DNA of 35,388 bases, taken from positions 1-35,388 of IMG/VR virus record IMGVR_UViG_3300037264_004781; one strand, given 5' to 3'. The notes beneath the pieces are model-generated. The model was not told the origin of the DNA and searched no databases. It worked only from the letters and a program-made list of their open reading frames with translations. The translations under genes and the position numbers were made by a program. Within the stretch, counting starts at the first letter, position 1; each line of letters opens with the position of its first letter. The stretch comes from a virus. Of the stretch, positions 3,907-35,388 are shown piece after piece.

Positions 3907-3940
3907 TGTTCGCACCCAGGTGTGGGCTGCGGAGATAATG

Positions 3941-14200: not shown

Positions 14201-17067
14201 AGCGCGCTGTCGTGATCGCCACCGAGGACCACCGCTTCCAGGTTCTCGGCGACTTCGGATCGCTAGACCCGGCCACACCCGGTTACGAGCACGTCATCGG
14301 TCGGTCCCTTGTCGAGGCGAAGAACCTTGAGAAGGGCATGAAACTGCCCGTCGCCGAGATGGGCGAGGAGGGGCGAAATCAGGACCACGCCTGGCACGCG
14401 CGTTCGACTCCGCAGAGTGTCCGGCTTAACCCGTTCACGAAGGAGATCGGCGACGGTCCGGCAGGAATAGTCCTGAACGAGGACTGGGCCTACTTCGCCG
14501 GCATGTTTCACGGTGATGGCTGCGCGTCGGGCAACGCCTGTGTCATCACGCACGGGCACACGGACGAATACGAGCCGTGGCGGAAGATCGTGCGCGAAGC
14601 CTGCGACAAGCTCGGGCTTCCTACGACCGTCACCTTAGACAAGCGGAACACCAGGATCGGCTCACGGATCGTGCGGCGATACTTCGCCGCGCTCGGGCTC
14701 TGCGAAGAGGTCGGCAAGAGCGGCACCAAGATCATGGGCGTGCCGTGGTGGGTCTTGGACGGCGGTCCCAGACTCATCTGGACCTACCTCGCCGGGCTGT
14801 TCGACACGGACGGCACCATCGGCAAGAAGACCTCCGGCACGGCCAGCGTGACCATGAAGTCGCCGGAATACGCCGGGCAGATCGCCTTCTTGCTTCGCGA
14901 ACTCGGAATGCCGGTGCTCGTCCAGGCCGGGTTCAACAAGACCTATGAGCGGTGGTACTACACGATCCACGTCCTCGGCGAGGGCCTGAAGCGGTTCCAG
15001 CGGTACTGCCCGATGCGGCACCCGGACAAGCAGGTCCGGCTCACCGAGCGCAACGAGACGATCAAGCGTCGGTGCGCGCCGTCAGACGACGAGGTGATGC
15101 TGGTTCTCGACGGCGGCGAGCGCACGGTCTACGACTTTCAGGTCGAGAACTCCGACCACCTCTACCTCCAGGGCGGGCTTCTTGGACACAACAACCTGAA
15201 TTTCGGGCTTTTGTACAGGATGGGCGCTCCTAAGTTCGTCACCTATGCGGACTTGTACGACGACGACGGTCTTCCGAGGACTGAGTACGCTGAAGGTCTG
15301 GTTGAGAAGTGGCATGAGGCCTATCCTGGCATCGATGAGTGGCACAAGCGAGTTATCGAGGAGCTGAAGAGGAACAACTTCATCGCCTATACGCTGACCA
15401 AGCGTCGTCGTCGACTCGACATCGAGTGGAGTAAGCCGGAAACTCAGTTCCGCGCTGGCACTCAAGCCATCCAGTTCAAGGTCTCGGGCTGCGTGGTTCC
15501 GACAACGCCGATCCTGACAAACGCCGGTTACGTCGAGATCAAGAAACTTGTTGAGAGTAAGACACCAATCTTCGATGGAGTCGGATTTACGAGTAACTAC
15601 GATGTCTTCGATACTGGATCGAAGGATGTGTTCAAAGTAACACTTGCCAATGGACGAAGTCTCACCTGCTCCGCCGATCACCGATTCGCCACGATGTCCG
15701 GTCTCGTTATGGAGTGGTCTAAGTTGTCTGAGTTGACCATTGGCGACACAGTAGGCACTCGTGACCTTCTGGCGCCTTGCGGTGAGACGGACCATGGGGC
15801 ATCGGTGGATGACGCCTATCTTATTGGCGCCATTATTGGAGATGGTTACTACGGCTCGTCTCAAGGATTTACTCTAGCTGCGTCTGCGAAGGAACCTGGT
15901 TGGCCTGAATCACTCGAGGCGTCTGTGATCGCGTCCCAGGGCGATCAGGTTAGCAAGCGGATGCGCTGGGGCATCAGAAAAACCAACCGTGGTGGATTGG
16001 TAAAGGATCTTGTCGTTAACAGCAGTCAGATCAGATCGAACTTGATGATTCTTGGTCTAGACTGTGTGTCCAAGCAGAAGAAGCGGATTCCAGAATGGGT
16101 TTTCACCGCTACACCAGAGATACGCGGCGCTGTTCTTGCTGGTCTTTTTGATACAGACGGATCCGTCCTCAGCTACAAGCAGAAGACATACACAGCGCTA
16201 ACGATCCAGTATTCGTCCAGAGTCAAGGAGCTTGTAGAGGGCGCGTGGAGGCTCGCGAGTTCTTTAGGCATCGAGTGCGGCCTACGCGAGCTTGATGTAG
16301 TAACTTCTGCCAAAGTAGGCGGTCAAACAAAGCAGTATCGGTTGGACGTCGTGTATCGTGGTTTTAGGGCGTTTGATCGTTGGGTCCGGTTACGTCATCC
16401 AAGGAAGGCGGCCACTCTAGCTGGCGCGCTTCAGTTGATCGCGAAGCGGCCTCCCAGGCGTGAACTGCCTTCTACGTATGTGAAGGCTGTGGCCGATATT
16501 GCCGACAAGGCTCCGGCCCTAGCCTCAAGGCAAGGGAGCTTGTCGTTGTTTGATGATGGGAGGCTTCGTCGCAGAGTTCAGACCTATATTGGTCACGCCA
16601 GGACCGGTAACGCCGGTGAGGGTATGATCGGAACCATCCTTGACTACATTGGTGAGAGTGGGCCAAAGGAGGTCTTGACCTACGGCTGGTCTAAGGTCGC
16701 CGCGATCGAACCCATCGGTAAATCGCCAACCTATGACATCGAAATCCATGGCGACAACCATGCCTATGTGGCCAATGGGTTGTTTACTCACAACAGTTGC
16801 CAGGATCTCATCAAAATCGCGATGGCCAAGATTTTTGATGCTAGGAACGGCAGGATCGCAAACTCTCCGCCGGCTGAATCTAAATTGTGGGACCGGTTTA
16901 GGTTTATGATCCAGGTGCACGATGAACTGGTGATGGAGGGGCCGCGTGCTATCCAGAACGAGTGCATGGAGATGGTCAAGACGAACATGGAGAGCGTCGC
17001 GCCGAACCTCTTGGTCCCTCTCGTCGCGAGCGTGCGCGTCGGGAGGAATTGGGATGAAACCCATTAG
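11251..17067 (+). CDS. polA: Family-A DNA polymerase with 3'-5' exonuclease and three inteins
   Basis: Removing inteins at residues 415-774, 921-1314 and 1414-1848 leaves about 749 residues. The exonuclease domain has YDLETTGL (Exo I), RHNGGFDD (Exo II) and YAMDDTT (Exo III), so proofreading is expected; no 5'-3' nuclease domain is seen. Polymerase motifs follow: GRL/SSADP at the first intein site, motif A DADYGQVELR, motif B RNPLAK/NLNFGLLY, SG/SCQDLIK, and motif C VHDE. All three inteins interrupt conserved active-site segments. Between motifs A and B is an extra roughly 50-residue Cys-rich insertion (including CPKC), a probable zinc module. GTG 11251 has GGGAGG upstream. The enzyme should replicate phage DNA. 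Confidence 0.96.
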   Translation: MANGAPKRAAKKVSPLVDNPDEAAWNPSDSGDVSVPFLIEAATREGIYAYDLETTGLNPRKHRIEGVAIYIPNDKAPDRKPVRAWFPFVDGTMDHATGGEITSVRPAMNQRRTMDQLRELWSIPGIIAIRHNGGFDDGFLFAASGCESPIVVKNLIADSMLADYISDERRKRYGLKIRVEQVFGHKMTTYDEAAGKQGVFAFALKKPLGAYAMDDTTWSFRLWKWAMDSMRKQAPPVEHKGDQWKSPYFDDGLPGVFSDLEKIFWNIEMKVQRVLLEMELQGCLIDWEWLVEVQQRIEKDKLRILEEIQKQAGWAPNLRSPKQVSDFLYAAKEDGGLGLPTKDIEYNDESESYSTADKAIAHFGKKVPVVKLLLDYRSLEVIDRSFCQKLIGIAQDEVRVFARFRQTGTVIGRLCVAAGTPIEVVRDVSKHPAGIPIQDVKSGDLVYTYDDALRLTLRRVKKSWKTGHRNVVRVHWRSKGNKHRGYVDVTPDHPIRLIDGTYVEANKLVAGDRCLALSRSVLSEGYARVYPTHADEIGREHRWVYETINGPVGHRHIHHKDGNKLNNRLDNLEALKPGDHVSEHTKEMWEDPKIRASITAATTDRWEDEAYCVKHHERMKQLWKDGKFVKPSGEDHPQYIRIEKEWLEAELWKHAGHPTLVARAHTINFDRLKRFIRDYGIDAKTIQLLHRSDGKLITREDVARAMEMKNQREALSFLKVNYYKFNALQRHFGLKPVFNHVIERVEALPDPIDVYDLEIEGTHNFIAGEICVHNSSADPVNLMNQPREKNLIRKAFCSRLENEQDPERQDMVFIDADYGQVELRMAAHLAREKNMIEVYTTGSICTKGALGIPCDRFAQWHECKDSLEKKCKWDGPILPGRPKVCPKCTGELEWQQRCRHVDLHQRTAEDVGVKRNPLAKCLDGRTLVRTVTGVRSLASLIPLTGIPGSHEPTAVMLADGRGGYVTSSSAIFRHNRPTKIVVTKRAVVIATEDHRFQVLGDFGSLDPATPGYEHVIGRSLVEAKNLEKGMKLPVAEMGEEGRNQDHAWHARSTPQSVRLNPFTKEIGDGPAGIVLNEDWAYFAGMFHGDGCASGNACVITHGHTDEYEPWRKIVREACDKLGLPTTVTLDKRNTRIGSRIVRRYFAALGLCEEVGKSGTKIMGVPWWVLDGGPRLIWTYLAGLFDTDGTIGKKTSGTASVTMKSPEYAGQIAFLLRELGMPVLVQAGFNKTYERWYYTIHVLGEGLKRFQRYCPMRHPDKQVRLTERNETIKRRCAPSDDEVMLVLDGGERTVYDFQVENSDHLYLQGGLLGHNNLNFGLLYRMGAPKFVTYADLYDDDGLPRTEYAEGLVEKWHEAYPGIDEWHKRVIEELKRNNFIAYTLTKRRRRLDIEWSKPETQFRAGTQAIQFKVSGCVVPTTPILTNAGYVEIKKLVESKTPIFDGVGFTSNYDVFDTGSKDVFKVTLANGRSLTCSADHRFATMSGLVMEWSKLSELTIGDTVGTRDLLAPCGETDHGASVDDAYLIGAIIGDGYYGSSQGFTLAASAKEPGWPESLEASVIASQGDQVSKRMRWGIRKTNRGGLVKDLVVNSSQIRSNLMILGLDCVSKQKKRIPEWVFTATPEIRGAVLAGLFDTDGSVLSYKQKTYTALTIQYSSRVKELVEGAWRLASSLGIECGLRELDVVTSAKVGGQTKQYRLDVVYRGFRAFDRWVRLRHPRKAATLAGALQLIAKRPPRRELPSTYVKAVADIADKAPALASRQGSLSLFDDGRLRRRVQTYIGHARTGNAGEGMIGTILDYIGESGPKEVLTYGWSKVAAIEPIGKSPTYDIEIHGDNHAYVANGLFTHNSCQDLIKIAMAKIFDARNGRIANSPPAESKLWDRFRFMIQVHDELVMEGPRAIQNECMEMVKTNMESVAPNLLVPLVASVRVGRNWDETH
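12493..13572 (+). mobile_element. Polymerase intein 1 with HNH endonuclease
   Basis: The 360-residue intein starts with Cys (CVAAGTP), has block B VTPDHPIRL, and ends FIAGEICVHN with Ser +1. Its HNH core is HIHHKDGNKLNN followed by LDNLE. It separates GRL from SSADP, a conserved family-A primer/template motif. Splicing residues are intact. Confidence 0.95.
14011..15192 (+). mobile_element. Polymerase intein 2, LAGLIDADG type, non-canonical +1 Asn
   Basis: The 394-residue intein begins CLDGRTLV and ends LYLQGGLLGHN. Two LAGLIDADG motifs, FAGMFHGDG and LAGLFDTDG, mark the homing endonuclease. It splits motif B between the catalytic Lys and NLNFG. The residue after the terminal Asn is Asn, not Cys, Ser or Thr, so standard transesterification lacks its nucleophile. 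Third codon positions are far more GC-rich than in the neighbouring inteins. Confidence 0.92.
15490..16794 (+). mobile_element. Polymerase intein 3, LAGLIDADG type
   Basis: The 435-residue intein begins CVVPTTPIL, has SADHRFA as block B, and ends YVANGLFTHN with Ser +1. LAGLIDADG motifs are LIGAIIGDGYY and LAGLFDTDGS. It sits in the helix equivalent to the QGTAADIIK segment of Pol I, shortly before motif C. Confidence 0.95.
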
Positions 17068-20490: not shown

Positions 20491-20787
20491 ATGACTAAGC
20501 GCCAGCCCCCGAAGCCAGAGCCCTCTGAGCCTGACGAGGACAAGACTTCGGATGGGCCAGCTCCATGGAACGTTGAGGTTGAATTTATCGACCTAAGTCG
20601 AAAGAGCGTGATGCATTCTATCTATGGAGCCAGCCTTGACGCCGAACGCGTCTATCTTCTGCTGGAAGATGGGAAGCATATTGTTTACCCTCACGACATC
20701 GTGCGCAAGGTCTTAATGATGCACTCATCTAAATACGATGGTTACGTCGAGTCCAAGCCGCCGAACGGCGAGGAAGTGTCCGAGTGA
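20491..20787 (+). CDS. Small hypothetical acidic protein (98 aa)
   Basis: A Pro/Glu/Asp-rich disordered start (about 28 residues) precedes a compact domain with VEVEFIDLS, YLLLEDGKHIVYPHDIVRKV. Its stop overlaps the GTG of the following metalloprotease-like gene as GTGA, so the two are coupled. AGGAGC is about 12 bases upstream. No family is recognised; it might be a partner of the downstream fusion protein. Confidence 0.65.
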   Translation: MTKRQPPKPEPSEPDEDKTSDGPAPWNVEVEFIDLSRKSVMHSIYGASLDAERVYLLLEDGKHIVYPHDIVRKVLMMHSSKYDGYVESKPPNGEEVSE

Positions 20788-22043
20788 AGCGTGTGTTGGC
20801 CGCGTTTCGTCTGCTGACGCCCAAGCAGCATAAGCTCGGCCCGCTCCGCATCTCCGCAGATTACGATGTTCCGGCCGAGGGCATCGGCGACTTTCTCGAC
20901 GCCAGTTACATCGCCGTCGAGAAGCTCCGCGCCTTCGGTTTCCGCGACAAAGACTTTGGCGGAGCGATTAAAGTCGTCCATCGTGAACCCGGAGAACGCG
21001 CCAATGGTCGCTATACGCCAGAGAGCGACGAGTCAAAAATCTTCTACCCTCAGGTAAGAGGGGCACCCGATTGGTTGTGGACTATTGTCCACGAGCTTGC
21101 GCATCGCATCTGGTACAAGCTCCTCTCTAAGGACGCCAAAGAGGTTTGGACCGTCATCGCAAACAGCATGGGGAAACCGATCCCGCCCAGTGCTGCCGAT
21201 GCGATTACACGGCTGGTCGCTAAGCACCCGGACCGACAGAACTTATGGTTCTTCTTCAAGAAGCACTTTGGACCAGACCTTGAGGCGTTCAAGGCTTGGC
21301 TCCAGACCAAGCGTGTGTCTAATGAGTTTCCGACCGACTACTCGAACGCCGATCCGGCTGAGTCCTTCGCTGAAGTCATGGCCGATACGATCCTAGGTCG
21401 CGGCCGGATCGGACTCAGGATGCAGCGATCCGGTTCGACTATGAAGAAGGTTCTCCTGAGTCTAGTCGCGCCGTTCAGGAATCGTGAGATCTCTGAGGAC
21501 TCGTTGTTGGAGCAGGGTGACGAGAACTTCCTGCAGTCCCAGATCGACCTACCGAGTGTGGCTGGGCCGCTCAGTAAATGGGTCGCCGATAATCTCGCTG
21601 AATCGATGATCGAGCGAGTCGAACGGCGGCCGCACGTCACCTTGGTCTACGGTCTAGATCGACAGGACCAACAGCTCATAGCCGAAGCCGGCGCCGATTA
21701 CGGGCGGCCTATCAGGGTCTCGCTAGGAGCCATGAACTTCTTCGACGCACCCGATCACGACGTGCTTTACATCGAGATCGTGAGCGAGGGCCTGCTAGGG
21801 CTCCGGCGCGCGCTTTTGAAGTTGCCGCATACCCGTAGTCAAACACACGACGACTATATCCCTCACATGACAGTCGCCTACCTGAAGAAGGGTAAGGCTG
21901 CGCGCTTTAAGGGCACAACGCCGTTGCGCGCTGTGGCGTCCCGAGACGGGTTCTCTGTGATCGACGCTATCGGAACAGAGATCTTCATTCCGACCGTTGT
22001 TGAGCAAGCGGCGGCTAGCCCGATCCTACTTGCCGATCGATAA
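20784..22043 (+). CDS. Zincin metallopeptidase-like domain fused to a 2H phosphoesterase domain
   Basis: Two catalytic modules are visible in 419 residues. At residues 103-107 HELAH is the HExxH zinc site, with ESFAE at 193-197 able to supply a third Glu ligand, giving a gluzincin-like arrangement. At 284-286 HVT and at 361-363 HMT are the two HxT motifs of 2H phosphoesterases (LigT/2',5'-RNA ligase-like), each on a hydrophobic strand and about 75 residues apart, as expected for that fold. Substrates are unknown; 2H enzymes can cleave cyclic nucleotides or 2',5'-linked oligonucleotides, an anti-defence role in some viruses. The gene lies shortly upstream of the portal, so virion maturation is also possible. 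GTG 20784 overlaps the previous stop, with GAGGAAG upstream. Confidence 0.75.
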   Translation: MKRVLAAFRLLTPKQHKLGPLRISADYDVPAEGIGDFLDASYIAVEKLRAFGFRDKDFGGAIKVVHREPGERANGRYTPESDESKIFYPQVRGAPDWLWTIVHELAHRIWYKLLSKDAKEVWTVIANSMGKPIPPSAADAITRLVAKHPDRQNLWFFFKKHFGPDLEAFKAWLQTKRVSNEFPTDYSNADPAESFAEVMADTILGRGRIGLRMQRSGSTMKKVLLSLVAPFRNREISEDSLLEQGDENFLQSQIDLPSVAGPLSKWVADNLAESMIERVERRPHVTLVYGLDRQDQQLIAEAGADYGRPIRVSLGAMNFFDAPDHDVLYIEIVSEGLLGLRRALLKLPHTRSQTHDDYIPHMTVAYLKKGKAARFKGTTPLRAVASRDGFSVIDAIGTEIFIPTVVEQAAASPILLADR

Positions 22044-22058
22044 TAGGCTGAGGTGTGT

Positions 22059-22772
22059 ATGGGTCTTCGCGGCGACATGAAGATCGAGACGGCTTCTGGT
22101 CCGATCTCCGTTTCCGAACTTGCCAGACGCTGCGAGTCGAGCCAAGGCCTCTCCGTTCCGGTCTTCGTTTGGACCGGAACGCGATTCTATGTAGCCAAGG
22201 CTTCAGACTTCAGAACGATGGGACAAGAACAGCTCTTTATAGTCGAACTAGATAGCGGCGACAGGCTGTATGTGTCAGCCAGTTCAAGCTTTGTGATGCT
22301 TAACCGCACCACGAAGTTGCCTCCCGAACTCGTTGACGGCGATAGCCTTCTACCACTCTACACCAGTGAAGACGCGCACGGTTACCCGACCTATAAAGAG
22401 CCAGGGACAACGCAACCTAATAAGTTCTCAAGACTTGTGGCTGAGTGGAAGACGGGGCAGAAACTACCCTCCGGTACGTTCGTCGAGCACATCGACAACA
22501 ACCGAAAGAACTACCACCCTGATAACCTGCAGATTACACAGAACATCGCCAAGGCGTCTAAGTCTAGATCTTATGGCATCATACGGGCTGTCGAGGCTGC
22601 TCAAGAGCTGTTCGACGAATACGACCAGCTGGGCTCTAACTCAGCGAGTATCATCCTTAAGCCCAATCACCGAGTGCTCTCAGTGGAGGTGGGCCACCTG
22701 GAGGACGTTTTCACGGCAACAATAGATACGGCAGATACGGTTGCTGTTTCTGGCGTTTTCCTTAAGATATGA
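22059..22772 (+). CDS. Freestanding Hint-HNH protein derived from an intein
   Basis: The 237-residue protein has the layout of an intein but is not inserted in any host protein. A Hint-like N-half (PVFVWTGTRFYVA, LFIVELDSGDRLYVS, GDSLLPLY) leads to an HNH-like core (FVEHIDNNRKN, HPDNLQI), then a C-half (HRVLSVEVGHLEDVF, AVSGVF). GDSLLPLY and the C-half closely mirror portal inteins 3 and 4. The N-terminal Cys is absent, the block-B His is replaced (SASSSF), and the end reads GVFLKI instead of VHN, so splicing should be impossible. It probably acts as a freestanding homing endonuclease next to the intein-rich portal gene. ATG 22059 has GAGG five bases upstream. Confidence 0.8.
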   Translation: MGLRGDMKIETASGPISVSELARRCESSQGLSVPVFVWTGTRFYVAKASDFRTMGQEQLFIVELDSGDRLYVSASSSFVMLNRTTKLPPELVDGDSLLPLYTSEDAHGYPTYKEPGTTQPNKFSRLVAEWKTGQKLPSGTFVEHIDNNRKNYHPDNLQITQNIAKASKSRSYGIIRAVEAAQELFDEYDQLGSNSASIILKPNHRVLSVEVGHLEDVFTATIDTADTVAVSGVFLKI

Positions 22773-22821: not shown

Positions 22822-25800
22822 GTGGGTCTAAGAGACGACGCTATTACGTTCCTACGCCAAGTGTTCGGCCGCGAACGCGCCGAACGCGAGAGGGCGGAGT
22901 CTCCCTCAGCCGAAGCTGAACGAAACCTACCGTCTTCGATTTTCAGTGTTTGGGGACGTGAAGACGTCGGCGGTCTACTCACCGTCTCTCAGAACTTGAT
23001 GGATAAGTTCGCCGACTGCGAACAGATGGATGAGTACCCAGACATTAACTGTTTAGCGGGCGATACGAAGGTCTATATCGCTGAAGGCTCAGTGATTAAA
23101 CCGGCCGCGATTCATGATCTGGCCGCTGAGGGCGGCGGCTACCAGATCCTTGCTTACGACCTGGAGACCTCCAAGCTCGTCCTCGTGCAAGGCGAAAACC
23201 CCAGACTCACGGCCAATAACATCCCGGTCATTGCTATCAAGCTGAGCAACGGCGAGACGATTAAGTGCACGAAGGACCACAAGTTCCTCAAGCATGGCAC
23301 TGGCTACGTGAACGCCGAACTGCTTAAGAAGGACGACAAGATCGTCTCTTCGTGGGCCGGTTTCAGCACGTCTCAACTCAGCATCTTCTCCTACCCGGCG
23401 GCCCACTACGTCACCGTGGTGGAGAACCCGTCTGAGGCAGGAGTGACTGACGTTTACGATGTCACGACGAAGACGCACAACTTCGTCGCTAACGGCGTTG
23501 TGGTTCATAATAGCGCCAACCACTACTTCACGAACGACGCGACGCAGCCTGACATTGACACTGGTCGAACTGTCTGGGTCCACTCGAATGACCACGCGCT
23601 AAAGGAGCTTGCGGAAACACTGCTCCATAAGCGGCTCAAGATCGAGGACGAGATCTGGAGCATCGTCTACACGACCGTCAAATACGGAAACGACTACGAG
23701 GAAGTCCTAGTCACCGAGAACGGCGTAATCGGCCTCAACGCGCTCCCCGTTCCGACGATGCGCCGTGTCGAGCAGGCTAACGGCTCTCTGATCGGCTACG
23801 TCCAAGACATCACAGGTAAGTTCACTCAAGACGCGGCCGACCTTCGCGGCATGCTTGCTGGGCAGACAAAGATCCCGGATCACGTTGCGCTCTTCGAGGA
23901 GTGGCAAGTCCTTCACACGCGGCTCCGTGGTACGACTCGTCGGTCTCCTTACGGTGTGAGTATTAGTGACGGCGCTCGCTGGATCTGGAAGCGTCTTGTT
24001 CTTCTCGAAGATGCAATGCTCATCTATAAGCTCTGCCTGCGCGGAGACTCGCAGATCTGGACACCTGGTGGTCGCAAGGCCATCAAGGACCTCAATGAGG
24101 GCGACGAGGTTTACTCATACACCACAGAAGACAAACTCAAGAAGACAAAGGTCGTCTACAAGAAGCACAACGGTCAGGACCAAATTTATCGTGTCCATAG
24201 CGACCATCGTGAGATCTTTGCCAACAAGACGCACCCCGTTTTGGTGGAGCGAATTGTCGGGCATGGTAGTGGTAAACCACGCGCCCGTATTGTTGAGTAT
24301 GTTGAGGTCCAGAACCTGATTCCAGGCGTTCACAGCTTTATGACACCGAAGAAGAACACCAACGACTGGGAAGAGATTCGACTCAAGAGACCAGAGCTTC
24401 ATACTAAGGCAACGCTCACACCACGACCTGAACTTCAGGAAATGGTTACAGCATACGCTGTCTCTAAGAAAATAAATCATGGTGGGAGCGGCTACCGCCG
24501 TATCAAGGAATTCCTGGGCGGCCATCGCGAGATCAAGACAGAGACTGTAATGGCGATGCTGAAGGGTTCCGGTTACACAGCTGAAGACTTGACGGTGAAA
24601 GAGCACTGGTCTGGAGCGCATGGTGACGTTGTAAGAGATGTCACCATTCCTGAATTCGTGGATGAGGACTTTGCCCAGTGGTTCGGCTTCATGCTCGGCG
24701 ATGGTTATATCACCACAAGGCATCAGACTGATGGGTTCGTTACCACTAACGAGGTTGGGTTCTCGTTGGGTGACGATACGACCACCAACGAGAAGTATAA
24801 GAAGCTATTTGAGAAGTATGTTCCACACGTCAAGTTGGTTGGCGATTCAGGTGGCAGGCTTGGTGCATATAGCTTCATATCTTGTAAGTTTGCCGAGTTC
24901 ATGTTGATGAATGGGTTCATTCAAGGCGCGCACAACAAACGCCTACCTGAGTGGATCTACAGGGCTAAGCCATCCATCAAGCTGGCCCTTATTCGTGGAC
25001 TCGCTGATGCTGACGCCCACATCAAACCCCGTAAGAACGGACGGAAGATCAGATACGAATGCGCTCGTTTCGAGATGTGCAATAGAGCGCTTCTCGAAGA
25101 CGTCCGTGAGTTGGCTATGCAACTCGGATTGGTGACTACGTTTGTCAGGTCGCGTGTCCGCAAGGGTGGACGGACTATCGAGGGTCACAAGAAGCCTCTT
25201 CCGACAACGACGGCTTATCAGCTCGACATATCATTTAAGTCTCAACCCATCTCTGAGCGGATCCGGGGCGTAACCACAATCAACAATGATGATATCTGGG
25301 ACATTGGCGTTGAGGCTGATGAGCACAACTTCATTGCCAATGGCGTGTGTCTGCATAACACAAGAGCCCCTGCAAGGTTTGCATTTTATATCGACGTTAC
25401 CGATATTCCTGGCGATAAGGTTGAATCCTTCCTAAGAAAAGCAAAGCAAGACCTGCGTAAACAGAAGATGGTAAACCCGCGTTGCCTCACCGCTGAGACG
25501 CCAGTGACCTGCCTCGACGGCAAGGACCGCTCTATGCGAGAGCTGGCTGAGGAAGTGCCGAAGCTGGCCGCCGAGGGGAAGCACCACTACGTGTTCTCCT
25601 ACGATGTTGAACGGAATCGAGTCGTTCCAGGCAAGATCGTGGGTGCGGCGCTCTCAGGTCAGAAGAAGCCTGTGTATCGCGTCCTACTCGACAACGGAGC
25701 CATCGTTCGCTGCACCGGCGATCATCCGTTCTTGCTCCGCAATGGAACCTACAAGCAGGCGCAGGATCTAGTGCGCGGTGAGTCTCTAATGCCGCTTTAT

Positions 25801-28353
25801 CTCTCAAGAAATAGTGGGGACGCGCAGAGTTGGACGTTCAACGACCCTGGTCTCCATCAGACTATTACCACCGATCAGATGTTGATAAATCAGCACAGCG
25901 ATAATAACCAAATACTGTCGATGATGGAGCAGAGGCTTCATCAGAGCCCCGACATGACCTATAAAGCGATGATCTCCTGGCTTAATTTGCAGAGTGATTT
26001 CAAAGCGCTGCATGGCTGGCTTGATAGAGAGGGGTTCTTCGCCATTCTCAACAGTCGTGGCCTCCCCAACTTTGAGGCTTTTCGTCAGCAAACCATCCGT
26101 CTTTCTCCTGTTGGTCAATCCAATCACAACGTTATTAGTGTCACTCCGGATGGTCTCGAAGACGTCTACGATCTCACTGTTGAGCGCTACCACAACTTTG
26201 CGCTCACTGCCGGCGTGTTCGTCCATAACACTCAGCGCCTTGATATGAGATTTAATCCAATGGACAACAGCGAAGACTTCTTCATCGCTGTTCGTGAGGG
26301 TCGTGAGCTGGCCCGCGTCGAGGTTCTGCAGGGTCCCGACTACCAGGCAACGGACGACGTCGACTACTTCGCCAGGAAGCTTCACGGCGTTCTGAAGGTG
26401 CCGCGCAGCTATCTTGGCCAGGACGACGCAGTCCCCGGGAAGTCGATTCTCTGTCTAACGGGAGATACCGAAGTTCCGCTACTCGATGGACGAACTAGAA
26501 CTCTTGAAGAGTTAACTGCCGAATATCATGCGGGTGGTGAATTCTACGTCTATTCCATAGGCCCAGACGGAAGTATTATTCCTGGAAGAGCACACACACC
26601 TAGACTGACTCGGCCCAACGCCGAAACGTTTGAAGTCACACTTGATAACGGCGAAGTTGTGAAGGCTACACCTGACCATCCGTTTATGATGCGAGATGGT
26701 TCTTATCGTAGGCTTGATGATCTTAAAGTGGGCGACAGTCTTATGCCGCTTTATCGACATGATTCAAAGGCCTCGCGAGACGGTATAGACGGCTACGACA
26801 TGGTTCTCGATCCAGTCGATGAATCATGGAAGTTTACGCACCGGCTTGCTGCTAAGCAGAAGTGGCCTGCGCGGGATCTCAAAAATGAAAGGCGTGTTGT
26901 TCACCACGTCGATTTCAACAAAAGGAATAACGATCCGAGAAACTTGTCAGATCCTCATATTGAAGAGCACCTTCAGATACACCGCGATCACTGCGACAAG
27001 ACTCTACGTCGACCAGAAGTTATTGCTAAGGCTATTGAAGCGTCCAAGTGGTGGACAGGCAGTGAGGAAAACAAGGCACAGTGCCGTCAGAACCTAGAAA
27101 CAGCGCGAGCGCCTGGTGGTGGCCAGGACGCATGGGTTAGGTCTGGTAGGCATCGAACTCTGAAGTCTCGGCAGATGACTGAGCAGTGGAGTGGCGATTC
27201 AAAGCTTCGGGCGCGGACAAAGACAGCTGAGTTCAGCCTCAGTTCTTCAGAGAAGATGAAAGAGTCGATCCGACTTGGAAAAATAAAGGTGCGAGGCTCT
27301 GACAATATCAGGTTCAGAACAGATGCAAGTTTTGCTCGGCTCGTAGATGTGGCTACGAGTTATCACTGCCAAACGATGAAAGACCTAATTAAGTGGACTG
27401 GTTATTCATCGGCCCTTATTTACCGATTGATTAAAGACGCTGGAACTTCTTATAAGGAGTTCGCCAATAACCATCTGGGCGGATTCAAGCCGGGACGGTG
27501 GGGCGGTAAGAATCACAAGATAGTAAGCATCAGACCGGCAGGGCGAGCAGATTGCTACGACTTTGTCGTTGACGACGTTCATAACTACGCGCTTAACGCT
27601 GGAGTCTTTGTCCACAATAGCAATGAGGACGTCAGGGCCGCGCGCGTAACAATGGGCGTTCAGCGCGAAGTGCGGAACAGCATCCGACGGCTCGTCCAGA
27701 TCGACCTCGCAGCCCGTGGCATCGACCCGTTCAAGCATGACCTTCAAGTGATGATGACGGTCCCGTCTGGTATCTATGAACTTGCTCACATGGAGGTCAA
27801 GAACGCTCGCGCCGACTTTGCCGGCCGCATTCAGCCCTTCGTCTCCAAGCGCTATATCCAGAAAGTCGTTTTCAAGATGAGCGATGAGGAGATCGATATC
27901 CTGGAGAAGGAAATCAAGAAGGAGCAAGAGGAGCAGGCGGCTCAACAGCAGCAGCAGCAGCAGGGCGGCGCTCCGGGTGGCGCGGCGCCTGGCCCACTTC
28001 AGATGCCGGACACCTCTGGAGCTTTGACTGGAGCGCCGGGCGCGGCGGCCCCGCCTCCTGGTAGCCCAGACATCGGGCCGCCCCCTGGCACCGCTGGCCG
28101 GCCCAACACAGCCGGCGAGTGGAAGAACTTCGACAACGCGCGGCGCCTAGAAGAGAGGAAGGAGAAGCTCTCCGAGAAGCGCCATGACGAGATTATGGAC
28201 ACGTTGGTTAAGGTCGTGTCGACCGACCGCGCGTTCGCGTCGCGCCTCAACCAGACGAACGCCTTCCTGCAAGAGTTCCGGCACACGGCGTTCGCAAAGA
28301 ACGGCAACGGGTCTGTTGTCGCGGCCCCGCGCGGTCGCGGGCACAAGAAGTAA
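22822..28353 (+). CDS. T4 gp20-like portal protein carrying four inteins
   Basis: The 1843-residue precursor loses inteins at residues 77-230, 405-846, 888-1136 and 1211-1599 to give about 609 residues. Extein segments match T4-type portals: an N-terminal DEYPDIN/SANHYFTND, YKL/TRAPARFAFYIDVTDIPGDK, RFNPMDNSEDFFIAVR, and DVDYFARKLHGVLKVPRSYLG, with SNEDVRAARV after the last intein. Twelve copies should form the head vertex ring through which DNA enters. The C-terminus adds a Glu/Gln-rich helix with seven consecutive Gln, a Gly/Pro/Ala linker and a charged helix, longer than usual. GTG 22822 has a weak GAGG. All four insertions lie in conserved portal segments. Confidence 0.93.
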   Translation: MGLRDDAITFLRQVFGRERAERERAESPSAEAERNLPSSIFSVWGREDVGGLLTVSQNLMDKFADCEQMDEYPDINCLAGDTKVYIAEGSVIKPAAIHDLAAEGGGYQILAYDLETSKLVLVQGENPRLTANNIPVIAIKLSNGETIKCTKDHKFLKHGTGYVNAELLKKDDKIVSSWAGFSTSQLSIFSYPAAHYVTVVENPSEAGVTDVYDVTTKTHNFVANGVVVHNSANHYFTNDATQPDIDTGRTVWVHSNDHALKELAETLLHKRLKIEDEIWSIVYTTVKYGNDYEEVLVTENGVIGLNALPVPTMRRVEQANGSLIGYVQDITGKFTQDAADLRGMLAGQTKIPDHVALFEEWQVLHTRLRGTTRRSPYGVSISDGARWIWKRLVLLEDAMLIYKLCLRGDSQIWTPGGRKAIKDLNEGDEVYSYTTEDKLKKTKVVYKKHNGQDQIYRVHSDHREIFANKTHPVLVERIVGHGSGKPRARIVEYVEVQNLIPGVHSFMTPKKNTNDWEEIRLKRPELHTKATLTPRPELQEMVTAYAVSKKINHGGSGYRRIKEFLGGHREIKTETVMAMLKGSGYTAEDLTVKEHWSGAHGDVVRDVTIPEFVDEDFAQWFGFMLGDGYITTRHQTDGFVTTNEVGFSLGDDTTTNEKYKKLFEKYVPHVKLVGDSGGRLGAYSFISCKFAEFMLMNGFIQGAHNKRLPEWIYRAKPSIKLALIRGLADADAHIKPRKNGRKIRYECARFEMCNRALLEDVRELAMQLGLVTTFVRSRVRKGGRTIEGHKKPLPTTTAYQLDISFKSQPISERIRGVTTINNDDIWDIGVEADEHNFIANGVCLHNTRAPARFAFYIDVTDIPGDKVESFLRKAKQDLRKQKMVNPRCLTAETPVTCLDGKDRSMRELAEEVPKLAAEGKHHYVFSYDVERNRVVPGKIVGAALSGQKKPVYRVLLDNGAIVRCTGDHPFLLRNGTYKQAQDLVRGESLMPLYLSRNSGDAQSWTFNDPGLHQTITTDQMLINQHSDNNQILSMMEQRLHQSPDMTYKAMISWLNLQSDFKALHGWLDREGFFAILNSRGLPNFEAFRQQTIRLSPVGQSNHNVISVTPDGLEDVYDLTVERYHNFALTAGVFVHNTQRLDMRFNPMDNSEDFFIAVREGRELARVEVLQGPDYQATDDVDYFARKLHGVLKVPRSYLGQDDAVPGKSILCLTGDTEVPLLDGRTRTLEELTAEYHAGGEFYVYSIGPDGSIIPGRAHTPRLTRPNAETFEVTLDNGEVVKATPDHPFMMRDGSYRRLDDLKVGDSLMPLYRHDSKASRDGIDGYDMVLDPVDESWKFTHRLAAKQKWPARDLKNERRVVHHVDFNKRNNDPRNLSDPHIEEHLQIHRDHCDKTLRRPEVIAKAIEASKWWTGSEENKAQCRQNLETARAPGGGQDAWVRSGRHRTLKSRQMTEQWSGDSKLRARTKTAEFSLSSSEKMKESIRLGKIKVRGSDNIRFRTDASFARLVDVATSYHCQTMKDLIKWTGYSSALIYRLIKDAGTSYKEFANNHLGGFKPGRWGGKNHKIVSIRPAGRADCYDFVVDDVHNYALNAGVFVHNSNEDVRAARVTMGVQREVRNSIRRLVQIDLAARGIDPFKHDLQVMMTVPSGIYELAHMEVKNARADFAGRIQPFVSKRYIQKVVFKMSDEEIDILEKEIKKEQEEQAAQQQQQQQGGAPGGAAPGPLQMPDTSGALTGAPGAAAPPPGSPDIGPPPGTAGRPNTAGEWKNFDNARRLEERKEKLSEKRHDEIMDTLVKVVSTDRAFASRLNQTNAFLQEFRHTAFAKNGNGSVVAAPRGRGHKK
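23050..23511 (+). mobile_element. Portal intein 1, mini-intein
   Basis: The 154-residue intein begins CLAGDTKV, has CTKDHKFL as block B, and ends FVANGVVVHN with Ser +1. The size and absence of any LAGLIDADG or HNH motif show a splicing-only mini-intein that has lost or never had an endonuclease. Confidence 0.95.
24034..25359 (+). mobile_element. Portal intein 2, LAGLIDADG type
   Basis: The 442-residue intein begins CLRGDSQIW and ends FIANGVCLHN with Thr +1. LAGLIDADG motifs appear as FGFMLGDGY and IRGLADADA. It splits the conserved YKL/TRAP segment of the portal. Its codons look more AT-rich than those of the flanking exteins. Confidence 0.95.
25483..26229 (+). mobile_element. Portal intein 3 with unrecognised or decayed insert
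   Basis: The 249-residue intein begins CLTAETPV, has CTGDHPFLL as block B, and ends ALTAGVFVHN with Thr +1. About 100 residues between the splicing blocks contain no clear HNH or LAGLIDADG motif, suggesting a decayed endonuclease. ESLMPLY links it to intein 4 and to the freestanding gene at 22059. Confidence 0.93.
26452..27618 (+). mobile_element. Portal intein 4 with HNH endonuclease
   Basis: The 389-residue intein begins CLTGDTEV, has ATPDHPFMM as block B, and ends ALNAGVFVHN with Ser +1. HNH core VVHHVDFNKRNN then DPRNLSD. A helical DNA-binding-like stretch (MKDLIKWTGYSSALIYRLIK) follows near the end. It is the closest intact relative, by eye, of the freestanding Hint-HNH protein. Confidence 0.95.
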
Positions 28354-28358
28354 CTACG

Positions 28359-29090
28359 ATGCAGCTCTCGATCAAGAGTAACCACGCAGCTGTTCAAAAG
28401 GCGATCGATGGGTTGCCTCAGAAGGTCGGCGAAGCTGCTGAGTCGGCTGGAGCTGTATTGGCCGCAGAATTGGCGGCCAAAATCAGGTCCATGATTCCCA
28501 AAGAGGGCGGCTGGTTCGACGTCTATAGGCACGCCGTCGATTTCATCGAGATCAGTCCGACCGAGTGGGGTATCGCGGGCATCGCACAGCTGTCGTTCGA
28601 CCAAGTGGAAGCTGATAAGTCGCTACTTTGGTTCCAGGGCGGCGACGAGGGTGCTCAGATTCTGGGGCAATACAATCCGTGGGTGATCGATGCCCTTCCG
28701 TGCGTGGTCGGCGGTATCGCGTCAGACGTTCTAGTACGTCCAGCAAGTGAGTCAGAGGTCGACTTCCATCGAGAGAGGCTCCAGAGCGAGCACTCCTCGA
28801 TAAGCGCGATCCTTACTCGCGTCGGTAAGAAGGTTAGCGCCAGCGGTCTACCGACGATCAACGGCAGCGTCATGGCTGACATCGACTTTCTAACTCGACG
28901 GCTGGAGTTCGGACTTGGGGGATTCCCGAGGACACCGATTTGGGCCACAGTAGCAGGACACGTTCAGTCGATGACGGATGGAGCGGCCGTCACAAAGGCA
29001 TTCGATAATCAACTGAATGGCGACGGTCGGCCACCAGAAACAAAGCACAACTCGAAGACCGCTGCAGACATCAAACACGGCGCTCAGTAG
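28359..29090 (+). CDS. Probable virion or connector protein of unknown family (243 aa)
   Basis: The gene starts five bases after the portal stop, so it is almost certainly in the same late transcript. The N-terminus reads like small phage neck or tail-completion proteins (SIKSNHAAVQKAIDGLPQKVGEAAESAG), with an amphipathic helix rich in Ala. The rest has no recognisable motif. No membrane segment or signal is visible. A connector, tail terminator or minor structural role is inferred from position only. The convergent TnpB-like gene begins its 3' end 38 bases away. Confidence 0.65.
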   Translation: MQLSIKSNHAAVQKAIDGLPQKVGEAAESAGAVLAAELAAKIRSMIPKEGGWFDVYRHAVDFIEISPTEWGIAGIAQLSFDQVEADKSLLWFQGGDEGAQILGQYNPWVIDALPCVVGGIASDVLVRPASESEVDFHRERLQSEHSSISAILTRVGKKVSASGLPTINGSVMADIDFLTRRLEFGLGGFPRTPIWATVAGHVQSMTDGAAVTKAFDNQLNGDGRPPETKHNSKTAADIKHGAQ

Positions 29091-29106
29091 TAGTTTTTCG
29101 CCAGCT

Positions 29107-29128: not shown

Positions 29129-30250
29129 TTACCCGATGTCGAGCTTCGGGGCAGGCTGGCTACAGCCCACGGCCTTAAAGACCGTATACTTGTTCCTCAC
29201 GTTGGTGGCCGCGTTCTTATCCACGGGCGCTTGAAACGCGCAGTGCGGACATGTGAACTGGCCGCGACGATGCGAGCCCTCGCTACCGCAACGTGAGCAG
29301 GGTAGATTGCCCGGTGGATCAACGTAAGCTACGGCGATCCCCGACGCGGCGGCCCGCGACTCGATCCTGTGTCGGATGTTTTCGTAGAACACCGGGCCGA
29401 CAACAGTCGGCAGTTTTCGCCTTGACGGTGACTGGTGGCGGAAGTCCTCAAGTACGATTACCGCTCTCGGACCGACCCAGTCAACCAGGCACTTAGCCGC
29501 CGTGCTGCAGAACGTCTTCGTTTGAAGGTAGCGCTTCCGACCTAGCCGTTTGAGAAGCCGGCGAACCGAACGTGTTTCGCGGCCCTCTGCCTTTCGGGTC
29601 GAGAGGCGGTCCTCTAGTCTCCTCCTGGTCTTCTCCCCGGACTTCATCATCGCCCGGTGAGCGACACCTGTTACGCGCATTGATCGGCCATTCATGTCAA
29701 TGGCCGCGATAGCATTCACATCGTTTAGGCTCACGCCGACGGGGAGCGCACCTACGCACTCAGGATCGGGTAGCGTGACCGAGAGTGTTGCGTGGAGTTT
29801 GCCACGGCTGATAGCCACGCACAGCGCATCGAACGACTCGGCCTGAGCCATCGCGGACTTGAACTGCTGCGGCACAGTGAACTTAAGTCGTTTACGGCCG
29901 CCGATCGTCCATACCGAAACTGTTCCGTCTTTATTGATGCTTGCGTCGCGCTTAGCCTTCCCGATTAAGAACATCGCCCTAGGCTTATTGAACCGGATCG
30001 GGTCCTTGATCTTGCTATCGTCGCGTTGACTATAGGCGGCCGCAACTGAGCGGATCGCGGTGCACGTCAACTGCGCCTTCAAGAGGCCACGAACTTTTGA
30101 GTAACTCTTGCGATGGAGGGCAATCGCGGACGAGGCATTAACTAATTTGGCAGCGATCTCTGAAACGGCCTGCTGGATGATTCTAAACGACTCGATGGTC
30201 GATCGAAGGTCAGAGTCATCCTCAAGCGTAAGAGTCACCACACGCTGCAT
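29129..30250 (-). CDS. tnpB: TnpB-like (IS200/IS605 OrfB) protein with altered RuvC-I site
   Basis: TnpB is an RNA-guided nuclease encoded by IS200/IS605-type transposons. The N-terminal domain (MQRVVTLTLEDD...) is typical. In the RuvC core, RuvC-II Glu268 (VIVLEDF), the zinc ribbon CSRC...CPHC (Cys318, 321, 334, 337) and RuvC-III Asp344 (APVDKNAATN) are present. The RuvC-I motif, normally GIDxG, reads GVSLND: the catalytic Asp is Ser174. It is therefore probably nuclease-dead, as in TldR-type repressors, unless the nearby Asp177 compensates. No tnpA lies nearby. It is inserted antisense between virion genes. ATG 30250 fits the family N-terminus and the expected transcription start; TTG 30286 would add 12 residues. 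Confidence 0.88.
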   Translation of the reverse strand: MQRVVTLTLEDDSDLRSTIESFRIIQQAVSEIAAKLVNASSAIALHRKSYSKVRGLLKAQLTCTAIRSVAAAYSQRDDSKIKDPIRFNKPRAMFLIGKAKRDASINKDGTVSVWTIGGRKRLKFTVPQQFKSAMAQAESFDALCVAISRGKLHATLSVTLPDPECVGALPVGVSLNDVNAIAAIDMNGRSMRVTGVAHRAMMKSGEKTRRRLEDRLSTRKAEGRETRSVRRLLKRLGRKRYLQTKTFCSTAAKCLVDWVGPRAVIVLEDFRHQSPSRRKLPTVVGPVFYENIRHRIESRAAASGIAVAYVDPPGNLPCSRCGSEGSHRRGQFTCPHCAFQAPVDKNAATNVRNKYTVFKAVGCSQPAPKLDIG

Positions 30251-30256
30251 CTCTGG

Positions 30257-30286
30257 ATCATACGCACTAGAGACGACTGCGGTCAA
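30257..30286 (-). promoter_or_regulatory. Promoter of the TnpB-like gene, probably leaderless
   Basis: On the minus strand TTGACC (30281-30286) and TATGAT (30257-30262) are 18 bases apart, close to sigma70 consensus. Initiation about seven bases downstream would fall at or beside ATG 30250, so the message may lack a leader. Confidence 0.55.
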
Positions 30287-30395
30287 CGGTTAGTGCGCAT
30301 CCCTTTGAGTCTGCTGGACTAATCGCAGTCTTACTATCGACTGATACGTATGATGCAAGTTAGTATGTGAGTAGCGATGGAGTCACCACCGAAGC

Positions 30396-31259
30396 ATGGC
30401 GCTTGATTTTGGCTATAGAACTGGAAGCGTCGATCTCCTTGACTGGGACGACGCGATGATCCGTGGCTTCGGCGCACTCGAAGACGCGAGCAAGAACCAA
30501 TTCTATCTGCCTCTCAACGGGATCTTCATCAAGGTCGAAGGCCGCGAGCAGCCGGTCGACCGCGCGTTGGTTGTCTACAAGCGTCCGGAGCCTACGCAGA
30601 TCACGGCCGTCCTGCCAATGATCGCTGTCATCCGGGATTCGATCGTCCCTGCTGAAATCCGCCTCCTTTCTCCGGTCCAACAGTATCGCCTCCCCGCAGA
30701 GGGCGCGCATGCTGTCTCAGCTAATGGTGAGATCGGCTTCACGAATTACGAGACCAAGGACAAGGAGCAGCCTTACGATCTGTTTTATACGTTCGAGTGC
30801 TGGTCTCGCTACAGGACTGTTGCCCAGATGCTTCTTGCGATGGTTATGCGCGCCTTCCCGCACAGAGGCGCCGTGACGCTTACCGATAGCATCGGGAACC
30901 CGCGCACTTACGCGCTGTTTCAGCAGGGTGTCAACGATCTGACCGACGTAAGCTCCATGGTCGACCGGATCCCCGGCTACGCCCTCTCGATCAAGGCTGA
31001 GGCCGAACTTACCCTCGACAGGACGCCGTTTTCGGCTCCGGCCTTCACCGGCTCAAGGACCAAGACACCGCTGCCTGGCGTTTCTAGCGGCCCTGGTGGC
31101 TACCAACTTGTTCCAGGCCCTGGCGGGTATGGGCTAGTCCCCGCTGATGCCAACGGTATTCCTCTGGCCGGTGGCGGGGTCGCTGATCCCAACCCGGGAC
31201 CTGGCGGGCTTTATGGTACTGGCCAGCCCATTATTCGCGAAGGCGTATACGGGAGCTAA
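30396..31259 (+). CDS. Probable virion structural protein with Gly/Pro-rich tail (287 aa)
   Basis: The first roughly 215 residues form a mixed alpha/beta domain (from FGYRTGSVDLLDWDD through SSMVDRIPGYALSIKAEAELTLD) without a motif I can name. The last 70 are Gly/Pro rich with GPGGYQLVP and GPGGYGLVP repeats, a flexible segment common in virion proteins. The gene sits between the connector-like gene and the sheath, so a neck, tail terminator or tail-completion role is likely by position. The upstream 100-base gap separates it from the divergent TnpB-like gene. No strong SD precedes the ATG. Confidence 0.65.
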   Translation: MALDFGYRTGSVDLLDWDDAMIRGFGALEDASKNQFYLPLNGIFIKVEGREQPVDRALVVYKRPEPTQITAVLPMIAVIRDSIVPAEIRLLSPVQQYRLPAEGAHAVSANGEIGFTNYETKDKEQPYDLFYTFECWSRYRTVAQMLLAMVMRAFPHRGAVTLTDSIGNPRTYALFQQGVNDLTDVSSMVDRIPGYALSIKAEAELTLDRTPFSAPAFTGSRTKTPLPGVSSGPGGYQLVPGPGGYGLVPADANGIPLAGGGVADPNPGPGGLYGTGQPIIREGVYGS

Positions 31260-34494: not shown

Positions 34495-35388
34495 ATGGGC
34501 AAGATGACTGATGAACAGCGGCAGACCGCATTCGCGGCTTATGCTGCTGGAGAGACTGTCGCGGCGCTCGCAAGACAATACGGTGTAACTGAACAGTCTT
34601 TATGGAAGTCGCTTAAGCGTCGCGGTCTTCTTGTCCAGCGATTGGTGATGAGTCCTCCGCTCACTGAAGCAGAGATCGATAGGGCGGTCAGTCTATACAA
34701 CTCTGGTCAATCTGTTCCGGACGTAGCGACTGTAATGGATCGCAGTGCTGCGACCATATGGAGAGCCTTTAACACTCGTGGAGTCCTACTTACCAAGGCC
34801 AAGAGCAAGCTCCGCCGTATCAGTGATGCCACAAGGGATCAAATCGTAACTTTCTATCAAGACGGCAAGACGCTTGATGAGATTGAGAAGACGCTCGCTG
34901 ACCAGGGCGTAACAAGAACGGTTGCCAAGCTCGAACTCAAGCGTCGTGGCATATCGCGTCGGCGGGCCGGAGCGCGTGGGATCTTCTTCAATCGACCAGA
35001 AAAGCAACAGGAGATCATCAAGCAATATGCTGACGGAGTGTCAGCGTCCCAGCTTGCTGAACTTAATGGTTGCTCGATAGATCCGATCTTCAAGATTCTC
35101 CGCGATGCGGACGTCGAGATTCGCGACTTCGACGCGGCCACAGGACTTGAATGGACAGACGGATCCGGTCGCACCAGGACCATGCGTTCCATGTGGGAGA
35201 TCAAGGCCGCGAAATATTTAGATGCCGATGGCCGCGAATGGGACTACGAGAAAGAGCACTACGACATCGGCGACGGCCACGTCTACACGCCGGACTTCTG
35301 GATCTACGCTGATGACGGCACGCTTGAGAAGCTCGTCGATGTGAAGGGTCAGTTGCGGTCTGAATCGGCGGCCGCGATCGAGAAGTTC
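34495..35388 (+). CDS. HTH-repeat protein with PD-(D/E)XK nuclease domain, 3' end missing
   Basis: The frame is open for 298 codons to the right edge. Residues 1-205 contain about four helix-turn-helix units resembling resolvase or homeodomain-like repeats (for example TVAALARQYGVTEQSLWKSL and SVPDVATVMDRSAATIWRAF). Residues 228-285 carry a nuclease signature: RSMWEIKAAKYL (Glu235), YEKEHYDI, YTPDFWI (Asp267), then LVDVKG (Asp282, Lys284), a PD-(D/E)XK core as in TnsA-like, Vsr-like and some phage homing enzymes. It sits after the sheath, where T4-type phages usually have the tube gene, suggesting a freestanding homing endonuclease. GGGAGG precedes the ATG and its own promoter overlaps an inverted repeat. 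Confidence 0.82.
   Translation, partial: MGKMTDEQRQTAFAAYAAGETVAALARQYGVTEQSLWKSLKRRGLLVQRLVMSPPLTEAEIDRAVSLYNSGQSVPDVATVMDRSAATIWRAFNTRGVLLTKAKSKLRRISDATRDQIVTFYQDGKTLDEIEKTLADQGVTRTVAKLELKRRGISRRRAGARGIFFNRPEKQQEIIKQYADGVSASQLAELNGCSIDPIFKILRDADVEIRDFDAATGLEWTDGSGRTRTMRSMWEIKAAKYLDADGREWDYEKEHYDIGDGHVYTPDFWIYADDGTLEKLVDVKGQLRSESAAAIEKF

What the first reader, a model, noticed from the sequence alone, without database searches (positions are those of the whole stretch)
29129..30250. TnpB-like protein with the first RuvC Asp replaced by Ser
RuvC-I reads GVSLND (Ser174) while Glu268, Asp344 and the zinc ribbon are kept. Loss of one triad residue should abolish DNA cutting but can keep RNA-guided binding, as in TldR-type TnpB-derived repressors. 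A copy within a phage virion-gene region could repress host, rival-phage or its own late genes.
Basis: partly seen in the sequence, partly recalled or inferred. Interest (0 to 1): 0.85.

Follow-up and report, generated by a model that had tools for sequence, protein, structure and literature searches.

The report
Phage-domesticated nuclease-dead TnpB with guide RNA
A family of large environmental phages has kept, in one fixed place among its tail genes, a transposon-derived RNA-guided DNA-cutting protein that has lost its cutting residues but still comes with a conserved guide-RNA scaffold and a short conserved guide, so it probably acts as an RNA-guided DNA-binding switch whose target is not yet known.

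Summary
ORF 29129-30250 (-) is a 373-aa TnpB-like protein whose RuvC-I Asp is Ser174; Glu268, Asp344 and the four zinc Cys are kept. It is no one-off. Six distinct relatives with complete genes (49-97% identity) and two partial ones sit in the same slot in related phages. The first catalytic Asp is S, N, A, A, A, A or S; in the five distant relatives the third Asp is Ser too. The seven form one clade (100/100). Every scanned contig with a close neighbour gene (>=66%) has it; every one with a 45-51% neighbour has an empty slot: one insertion, then retention. dN/dS is 0.07-0.18. The gene's 3' end plus about 30 nt encodes an omega-RNA-like scaffold with a pseudoknot (26 pairs, 100% paired, 6 with compensatory changes). 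Its end point matches active relatives, which places the guide. Guide positions 2-9 are identical in five phages; positions 13-24 drift neutrally. No other intergenic seed copy exists in 203-kb and 135-kb phage contigs, so own-gene control is unlikely. Best reading: an independently domesticated, TldR-like RNA-guided DNA-binding repressor acting on a host or competing phage. Target, TAM and repression are unproven.

The parts
29129..30250 (-). TnpB-like protein, 373 aa; RuvC-I Asp replaced by Ser174, Glu268, Asp344 and CCCC zinc ribbon kept
   Evidence: Alignments and family scans; AlphaFold2 model matching TnpB/Cas12f structures; dN/dS 0.068 against L001
29091..29193 (-). omega-RNA-like scaffold (29193-29100), overlapping the 3' end of the gene, plus the first 9 nt of the guide; hairpins and a pseudoknot (29160-29155 with 29105-29100)
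   Evidence: 26 pairs, 100% of cells paired, 6 pairs with changes on both sides on 7 sequences; same architecture in active relatives
29076..29099 (-). guide region GAAAAACTACTACTGAGCGCCGTG; conserved part is about the first 9-12 nt; overlaps the 3' end of the convergent 243-aa gene
   Evidence: Start placed by the common end point of active elements; conservation contrast
30257..30286 (-). promoter of the tnpB-like gene, TTGACC-18-TATGAT, 6 nt before the ATG (probably leaderless mRNA)
   Evidence: Promoter scan, conserved in six phages
30261..30299 (.). inverted repeat TACGCACTA...TAGTGCGCA over the promoter, largely conserved in all relatives; possible operator or left-end remnant
   Evidence: Alignment of upstream regions
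30337..30366 (+). putative divergent promoter of the 287-aa virion gene, TCGACT-18-TAGTAT
   Evidence: Conserved in relatives; not found by the consensus scan, so tentative
28359..29090 (+). 243-aa gene, left neighbour of the slot
   Evidence: Same neighbour in all relatives and adjacent to the 287-aa gene in empty-slot phages
30396..31259 (+). 287-aa gene, right neighbour of the slot, followed by the tail sheath gene

Best explanation
A TnpB from an IS200/IS605-type element inserted once between two virion genes of an ancestor of this phage group and lost its nuclease activity (RuvC-I Asp in all members, RuvC-III Asp also in one branch). Selection kept it as an RNA-guided DNA-binding protein. 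It is transcribed from its own promoter, antisense to the structural genes. The 3' end of the transcript is an omega-RNA scaffold followed by a guide of which about 9-12 nt matter. The protein-RNA complex binds DNA with a TAM plus seed (AAAAGCTA in most members, AAAAACTA here) and blocks transcription, as TldRs do. The target is probably outside the phage's own genome: a host promoter or a competing phage. Shown here: lost residues, common slot, single insertion, purifying selection, conserved RNA fold, conserved seed. Inferred: RNA binding, DNA binding, repression, target.
For: All seven complete members lack the RuvC-I Asp (S, N, A, A, A, A, S) and five also lack the RuvC-III Asp, while Glu268 and the zinc ribbon are invariant. 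One clade, 100/100. Slot occupied in 10 of 10 close relatives scanned, empty in 12 of 12 distant ones. dN/dS 0.07-0.18. Covarying scaffold with pseudoknot, homologous in layout to active relatives and to the pseudoknot described for ISDra2 (PMC10097598). Guide positions 2-9 identical in five phages at 35-50% neutral identity. No IS200 transposase, integrase or resolvase in the contigs searched. TldR precedent with 6-nt seeds (PMC13418256).
Against: No target site was found in any phage contig, and the host is unknown. The short guide overlaps the neighbour's stop codon in most members, which explains part of its conservation. The RNA structure was written with these sequences in view. Neither RNA nor DNA binding was measured. 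No published TldR sequence was compared.
Confidence: 0.6

Rival explanations
1. It still cuts or nicks nucleic acid with a rearranged active site (for example Asp177 or another acidic residue taking over), and works as a homing or retention nuclease.
For: Glu268 is invariant in the clade, and window and L001 keep Asp344 and have Asp177 nearby. Rearranged TnpB active sites have been described in the literature (own knowledge; paper not held).
Against: Column 177 is D, D, S, N, N, N, L, and five members also lack the RuvC-III Asp. The guide is conserved only over about 12 nt, shorter than the 16-nt guide segment of ISDra2 (PMC10097598).
Confidence: 0.07
2. The RNA-guided complex regulates the phage's own genes, for example the tail promoter next door or its own promoter.
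For: Position beside a divergent promoter; conserved inverted repeat over its own promoter.
Against: The only intergenic copies of the seed in the 203-kb and 135-kb contigs are the guides themselves. Those contigs may be incomplete.
Confidence: 0.1
3. The protein has been recruited for something that does not use RNA-guided DNA binding, for example a nucleic-acid-binding regulator or an RNA-binding factor acting on virion mRNA.
For: The target is unknown; the N-terminal and RuvC surroundings are diverged, with a long stem branch of 1.74.
Against: The scaffold pseudoknot covaries and the seed is conserved next to it, which is expected only if the guide RNA is used.
Confidence: 0.15
4. A decaying TnpB remnant with no function, kept by chance.
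For: Lost catalytic residues and no transposase partner.
Against: Intact frames in seven diverged phages, dN/dS 0.07-0.18, retention in 10 of 10 close relatives scanned, conserved RNA.
Confidence: 0.02

Closest known systems
TldR, TnpB-like nuclease-dead repressors (Wiegand et al. 2024, as described in PMC13418256)
   Same: TnpB descendant with inactivated RuvC, retained guide-RNA scaffold directly at the 3' end of the gene, short seed, phage-borne in the flagellin-linked clade, tied to non-transposon genes.
   Different: No flagellin, CsrA or transporter gene beside it; lies among virion genes of phages without integrase; target unknown; own clade among the sequences compared here; relation to published TldRs not tested.
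IS200/IS605 TnpB (ISDra2 type)
   Same: Fold, zinc ribbon, antisense-free 3' scaffold with a pseudoknot next to the guide, same end motif in active phage relatives.
   Different: Catalytic D191/E278/D361 triad of ISDra2 is broken here; no TnpA partner; fixed in one slot; conserved guide shorter than 16 nt.
Cas12f, including a nuclease-deactivated Cas12f in the PDB (9n9c)
   Same: Best fold matches are Cas12f complexes; the deactivated Cas12f is also matched.
   Different: No CRISPR array was looked for or noticed here; the guide is encoded by the flank of the gene; the 9n9c entry is known to me only by its title.

Membership tests
TldR (TnpB-like nuclease-dead repressor) | Descends from TnpB | tested here: met
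   Domain scans, fold and tree
TldR (TnpB-like nuclease-dead repressor) | RuvC catalytic residues lost | tested here: met
   RuvC-I Asp lost in 7 of 7, RuvC-III Asp in 5 of 7
TldR (TnpB-like nuclease-dead repressor) | Guide-RNA scaffold retained at the 3' end | tested here: met
   Covarying pseudoknotted scaffold, same layout as active relatives; sequence evidence only
TldR (TnpB-like nuclease-dead repressor) | Stable association with a non-transposon gene | tested here: met
   Same slot between two virion genes in all relatives, no TnpA
TldR (TnpB-like nuclease-dead repressor) | Guide matches a promoter that it represses | tested here: inconclusive
   No site in phage contigs; host unknown
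TldR (TnpB-like nuclease-dead repressor) | Guide-dependent DNA binding and repression | not testable with these tools
   Needs RIP-seq, ChIP-seq and reporter assays
TldR (TnpB-like nuclease-dead repressor) | Groups with published TldR clades | not tested
   No published TldR sequence was fetched
Active IS200/IS605 TnpB | Intact RuvC D-E-D triad | tested here: not met
   Ser at RuvC-I
Active IS200/IS605 TnpB | Four-Cys zinc ribbon (TNB domain) | tested here: met
   PF07282 in 16 of 16 members
Active IS200/IS605 TnpB | Mobile: several sites or a TnpA partner | tested here: not met
   One copy per contig, one slot, no Y1 transposase

The most novel reading that the evidence does not exclude
Probably virulent phages carry a natural CRISPRi-like system, a dead TnpB with a fixed short guide, aimed at something outside their own genome: a host promoter, or the tail-operon promoter of competing phages that lack the element. 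The latter would be RNA-guided phage-versus-phage interference descended from homing.
Probability: 0.35. Interest if true: 0.85.

Novelty: new variant of a known kind. Interest (0 to 1): 0.62.

Why it matters
It would be a further domestication of TnpB into an RNA-guided regulator, in a setting (the structural module of probably virulent phages) for which I found no precedent in the held literature. Seven diverged examples give a natural experiment on how a nuclease loses its active site step by step (Asp to Asn or Ser in one branch, Asp to Ala or Ser plus a second Asp in the other) while guide scaffold and seed are maintained. It also suggests that natural DNA-binding guides shrink to about 12 nt once cutting is lost.

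Tried and rejected
Exact peptide patterns gave only two near copies and none in 84,980 bacterial and archaeal genomes. An eight-sequence alignment was too diverse to search with. Rfam: nothing. Seed targets in phage contigs: only the guide loci are intergenic; a 13-nt match at 4985 of the 203-kb contig lies inside an ORF and lacks the first two bases. Empty-slot phages do not carry AAAAGCTAYYT. A scaffold motif search of viral contigs returned only known members plus four chance hits. No phage record held carries the L020 gene or the neighbour protein, so the host stays unknown. The pseudogene reading was rejected on selection. A first dN/dS script failed on a wrong frame for a flank gene and was redone. 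Wiegand 2024 and Altae-Tran 2023 are not held.

Full report
OBSERVATION. The window is a 35,388-base viral record. The minus-strand ORF 29129-30250 encodes 373 aa. The longer TTG start offered mechanically (30286) lies in the -35 box of a TTGACC-18-TATGAT promoter. The -10 box ends 6 nt before the ATG, so the mRNA is probably leaderless (inference). Ser174 aligns without gap to the RuvC-I Asp of intact TnpBs; Glu268, Asp344 and the four Cys are present. Asp177 is not conserved in relatives.

FAMILY. Only the TNB zinc-ribbon domain reaches a Pfam cut-off. NCBIfam guided_TnpB matches below its cut-off and PHROG 506 matches at E 7e-16. An AlphaFold2 model from 16 window and locus sequences (pLDDT 83, pTM 0.61) matches Cas12f and TnpB complexes in the PDB at E 1e-16 to 1e-11, with moderate TM-scores of about 0.44-0.57 for the better matches.

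RELATIVES. An alignment search found four further contigs with 49-51% relatives. A second search added L040, and a search with the 287-aa neighbour added L048-L051. Seven distinct complete genes are known: window, L001 (=L002), L018 (=L019), L020, L021, L040 and L049 (=L050, L051); L006 and L048 are partial, cut by contig ends. RuvC-I reads GVS, GVN, GVA, GVA, GVA, GIA, GVS. RuvC-III reads DKN, DKN, then SKN in the other five. No member has the RuvC-I Asp; Glu268 is invariant. The seven form one clade at 100/100 with a long stem branch (1.74), against 14 intact TnpBs; the fewest changes are 4 for RuvC-I states and 1 for RuvC-III. Window and L001 differ at this codon by one transition (AGC and AAC, from the sequence).

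SLOT. In all ten scanned contigs whose 287-aa neighbour is at least 66% identical, the gene lies antisense between the 243-aa and 287-aa genes or, where a contig end cuts it, at the same place beside the 287-aa gene. In all twelve scanned contigs with a 45-51% neighbour the two genes are adjacent and the slot is empty. Of two long empty-slot contigs, the 275-kb one has no TnpB match at all and the 160-kb one only a weak partial match. One insertion followed by retention is the simplest history. Joining the window flanks (ACTCAA + GAAAAACTACTA) resembles the outgroup empty site (TCTCAAGAAACTAAG). This suggests, weakly, a TAM like TCAA and an original insertion at the -35 region of the tail promoter.

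SELECTION. dN/dS is 0.068 (window/L001) and 0.095-0.175 among the other five at synonymous divergence above 1, similar to or lower than for the 243-aa neighbour at those distances. The gene is not decaying.

GUIDE RNA. The last part of the gene and the short gap after it fold into hairpins plus a pseudoknot. On the seven-sequence alignment all 178 cells pair; six pairs have changes on both sides (shuffle mean 2.9, 2/500 as high); the covariation score is 0.271 against 0.178, 0/500 as high; sliding the partners destroys pairing. I wrote the structure after seeing these sequences, so the slide control is favoured, as the tool warns; the compensatory changes are the stronger evidence. The same architecture ends in GTTGAC or GTTTAC in active relatives. 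The two related elements L022 and L024 are alike only between 2577 and 3794, that is up to that point. The guide therefore starts at 29099 in the window. In ISDra2 the bases just before the guide form a pseudoknot, and such pseudoknots are conserved among Cas12 guide RNAs (PMC10097598).

GUIDE CONSERVATION. Guides: window and L001 GAAAAACTACTA, L018 TAAAAGCTATTT, L020 GAAAAGCTATTT, L021 AAAAAGCTATTT, L040 GAAAAGCTACCT, L049 GAAAAGCTACTT. Positions 2-9 are identical in the five relatives and positions 13-24 are 42% identical, against 35-50% identity at four-fold sites. Positions 7-9 coincide with the neighbour's stop codon in four of the five, but not in L018, where they are conserved all the same. 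A selected guide of roughly 9-12 nt is the best reading. Published TldR work reports that guides as short as 6 nt repress (PMC13418256).

TARGET. The 7-8 nt seed has no intergenic copy other than the guide itself in the 203-kb, 135-kb and smaller contigs, and the empty-slot phages searched lack AAAAGCTAYYT. No tyrosine integrase, resolvase or IS200 transposase was found in the contigs searched, the scans of 84,980 bacterial and archaeal genomes found no member, and tblastn with the L020 protein found none in the phage records. The phages are therefore probably virulent and their host is unknown. A host or rival-phage target is the remaining option, untested.

VERDICT. Nuclease-dead: about 0.93. 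RNA-guided DNA binding kept: about 0.75. Acting as a repressor in the TldR manner: about 0.6. It works like a TldR on every feature that could be tested except the target, which was not found; formal membership is not claimed, because target, binding and repression were not shown and no TldR sequence was compared.

Noticed in passing
window 3920-5971, 11251-17067, 22822-28353: The phage is rich in inteins: one HNH intein in an AAA ATPase, about three inteins (HNH and LAGLIDADG) in DNA polymerase A, and at least four intein N-terminal regions in the large gene upstream of the slot. The near-identical relative L001 lacks some of those in the last gene.
   Followed up: partly
window 22053-22772: A free-standing ORF that resembles intein splicing parts with an HNH nuclease, just upstream of the intein-rich gene.
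   Followed up: no
window 34495-35388: ORF with repeated helix-turn-helix motifs and weak endonuclease-like matches at its C-terminal end, perhaps a homing endonuclease, just after the tail sheath gene.
   Followed up: no
window 20784-22043: 419-aa ORF with a 2'-5' RNA ligase superfamily domain at residues 281-373.
   Followed up: no
window 30261-30299: Inverted repeat TACGCACTA...TAGTGCGCA over the tnpB-like promoter, largely conserved across relatives that are otherwise much diverged there.
   Followed up: partly
L055-L066, gap between the 243-aa and 287-aa genes: Empty-slot phages mostly have a good sigma-70-like promoter there (TTGAGA-17-TAGAAT) that the insertion would have split.
   Followed up: partly
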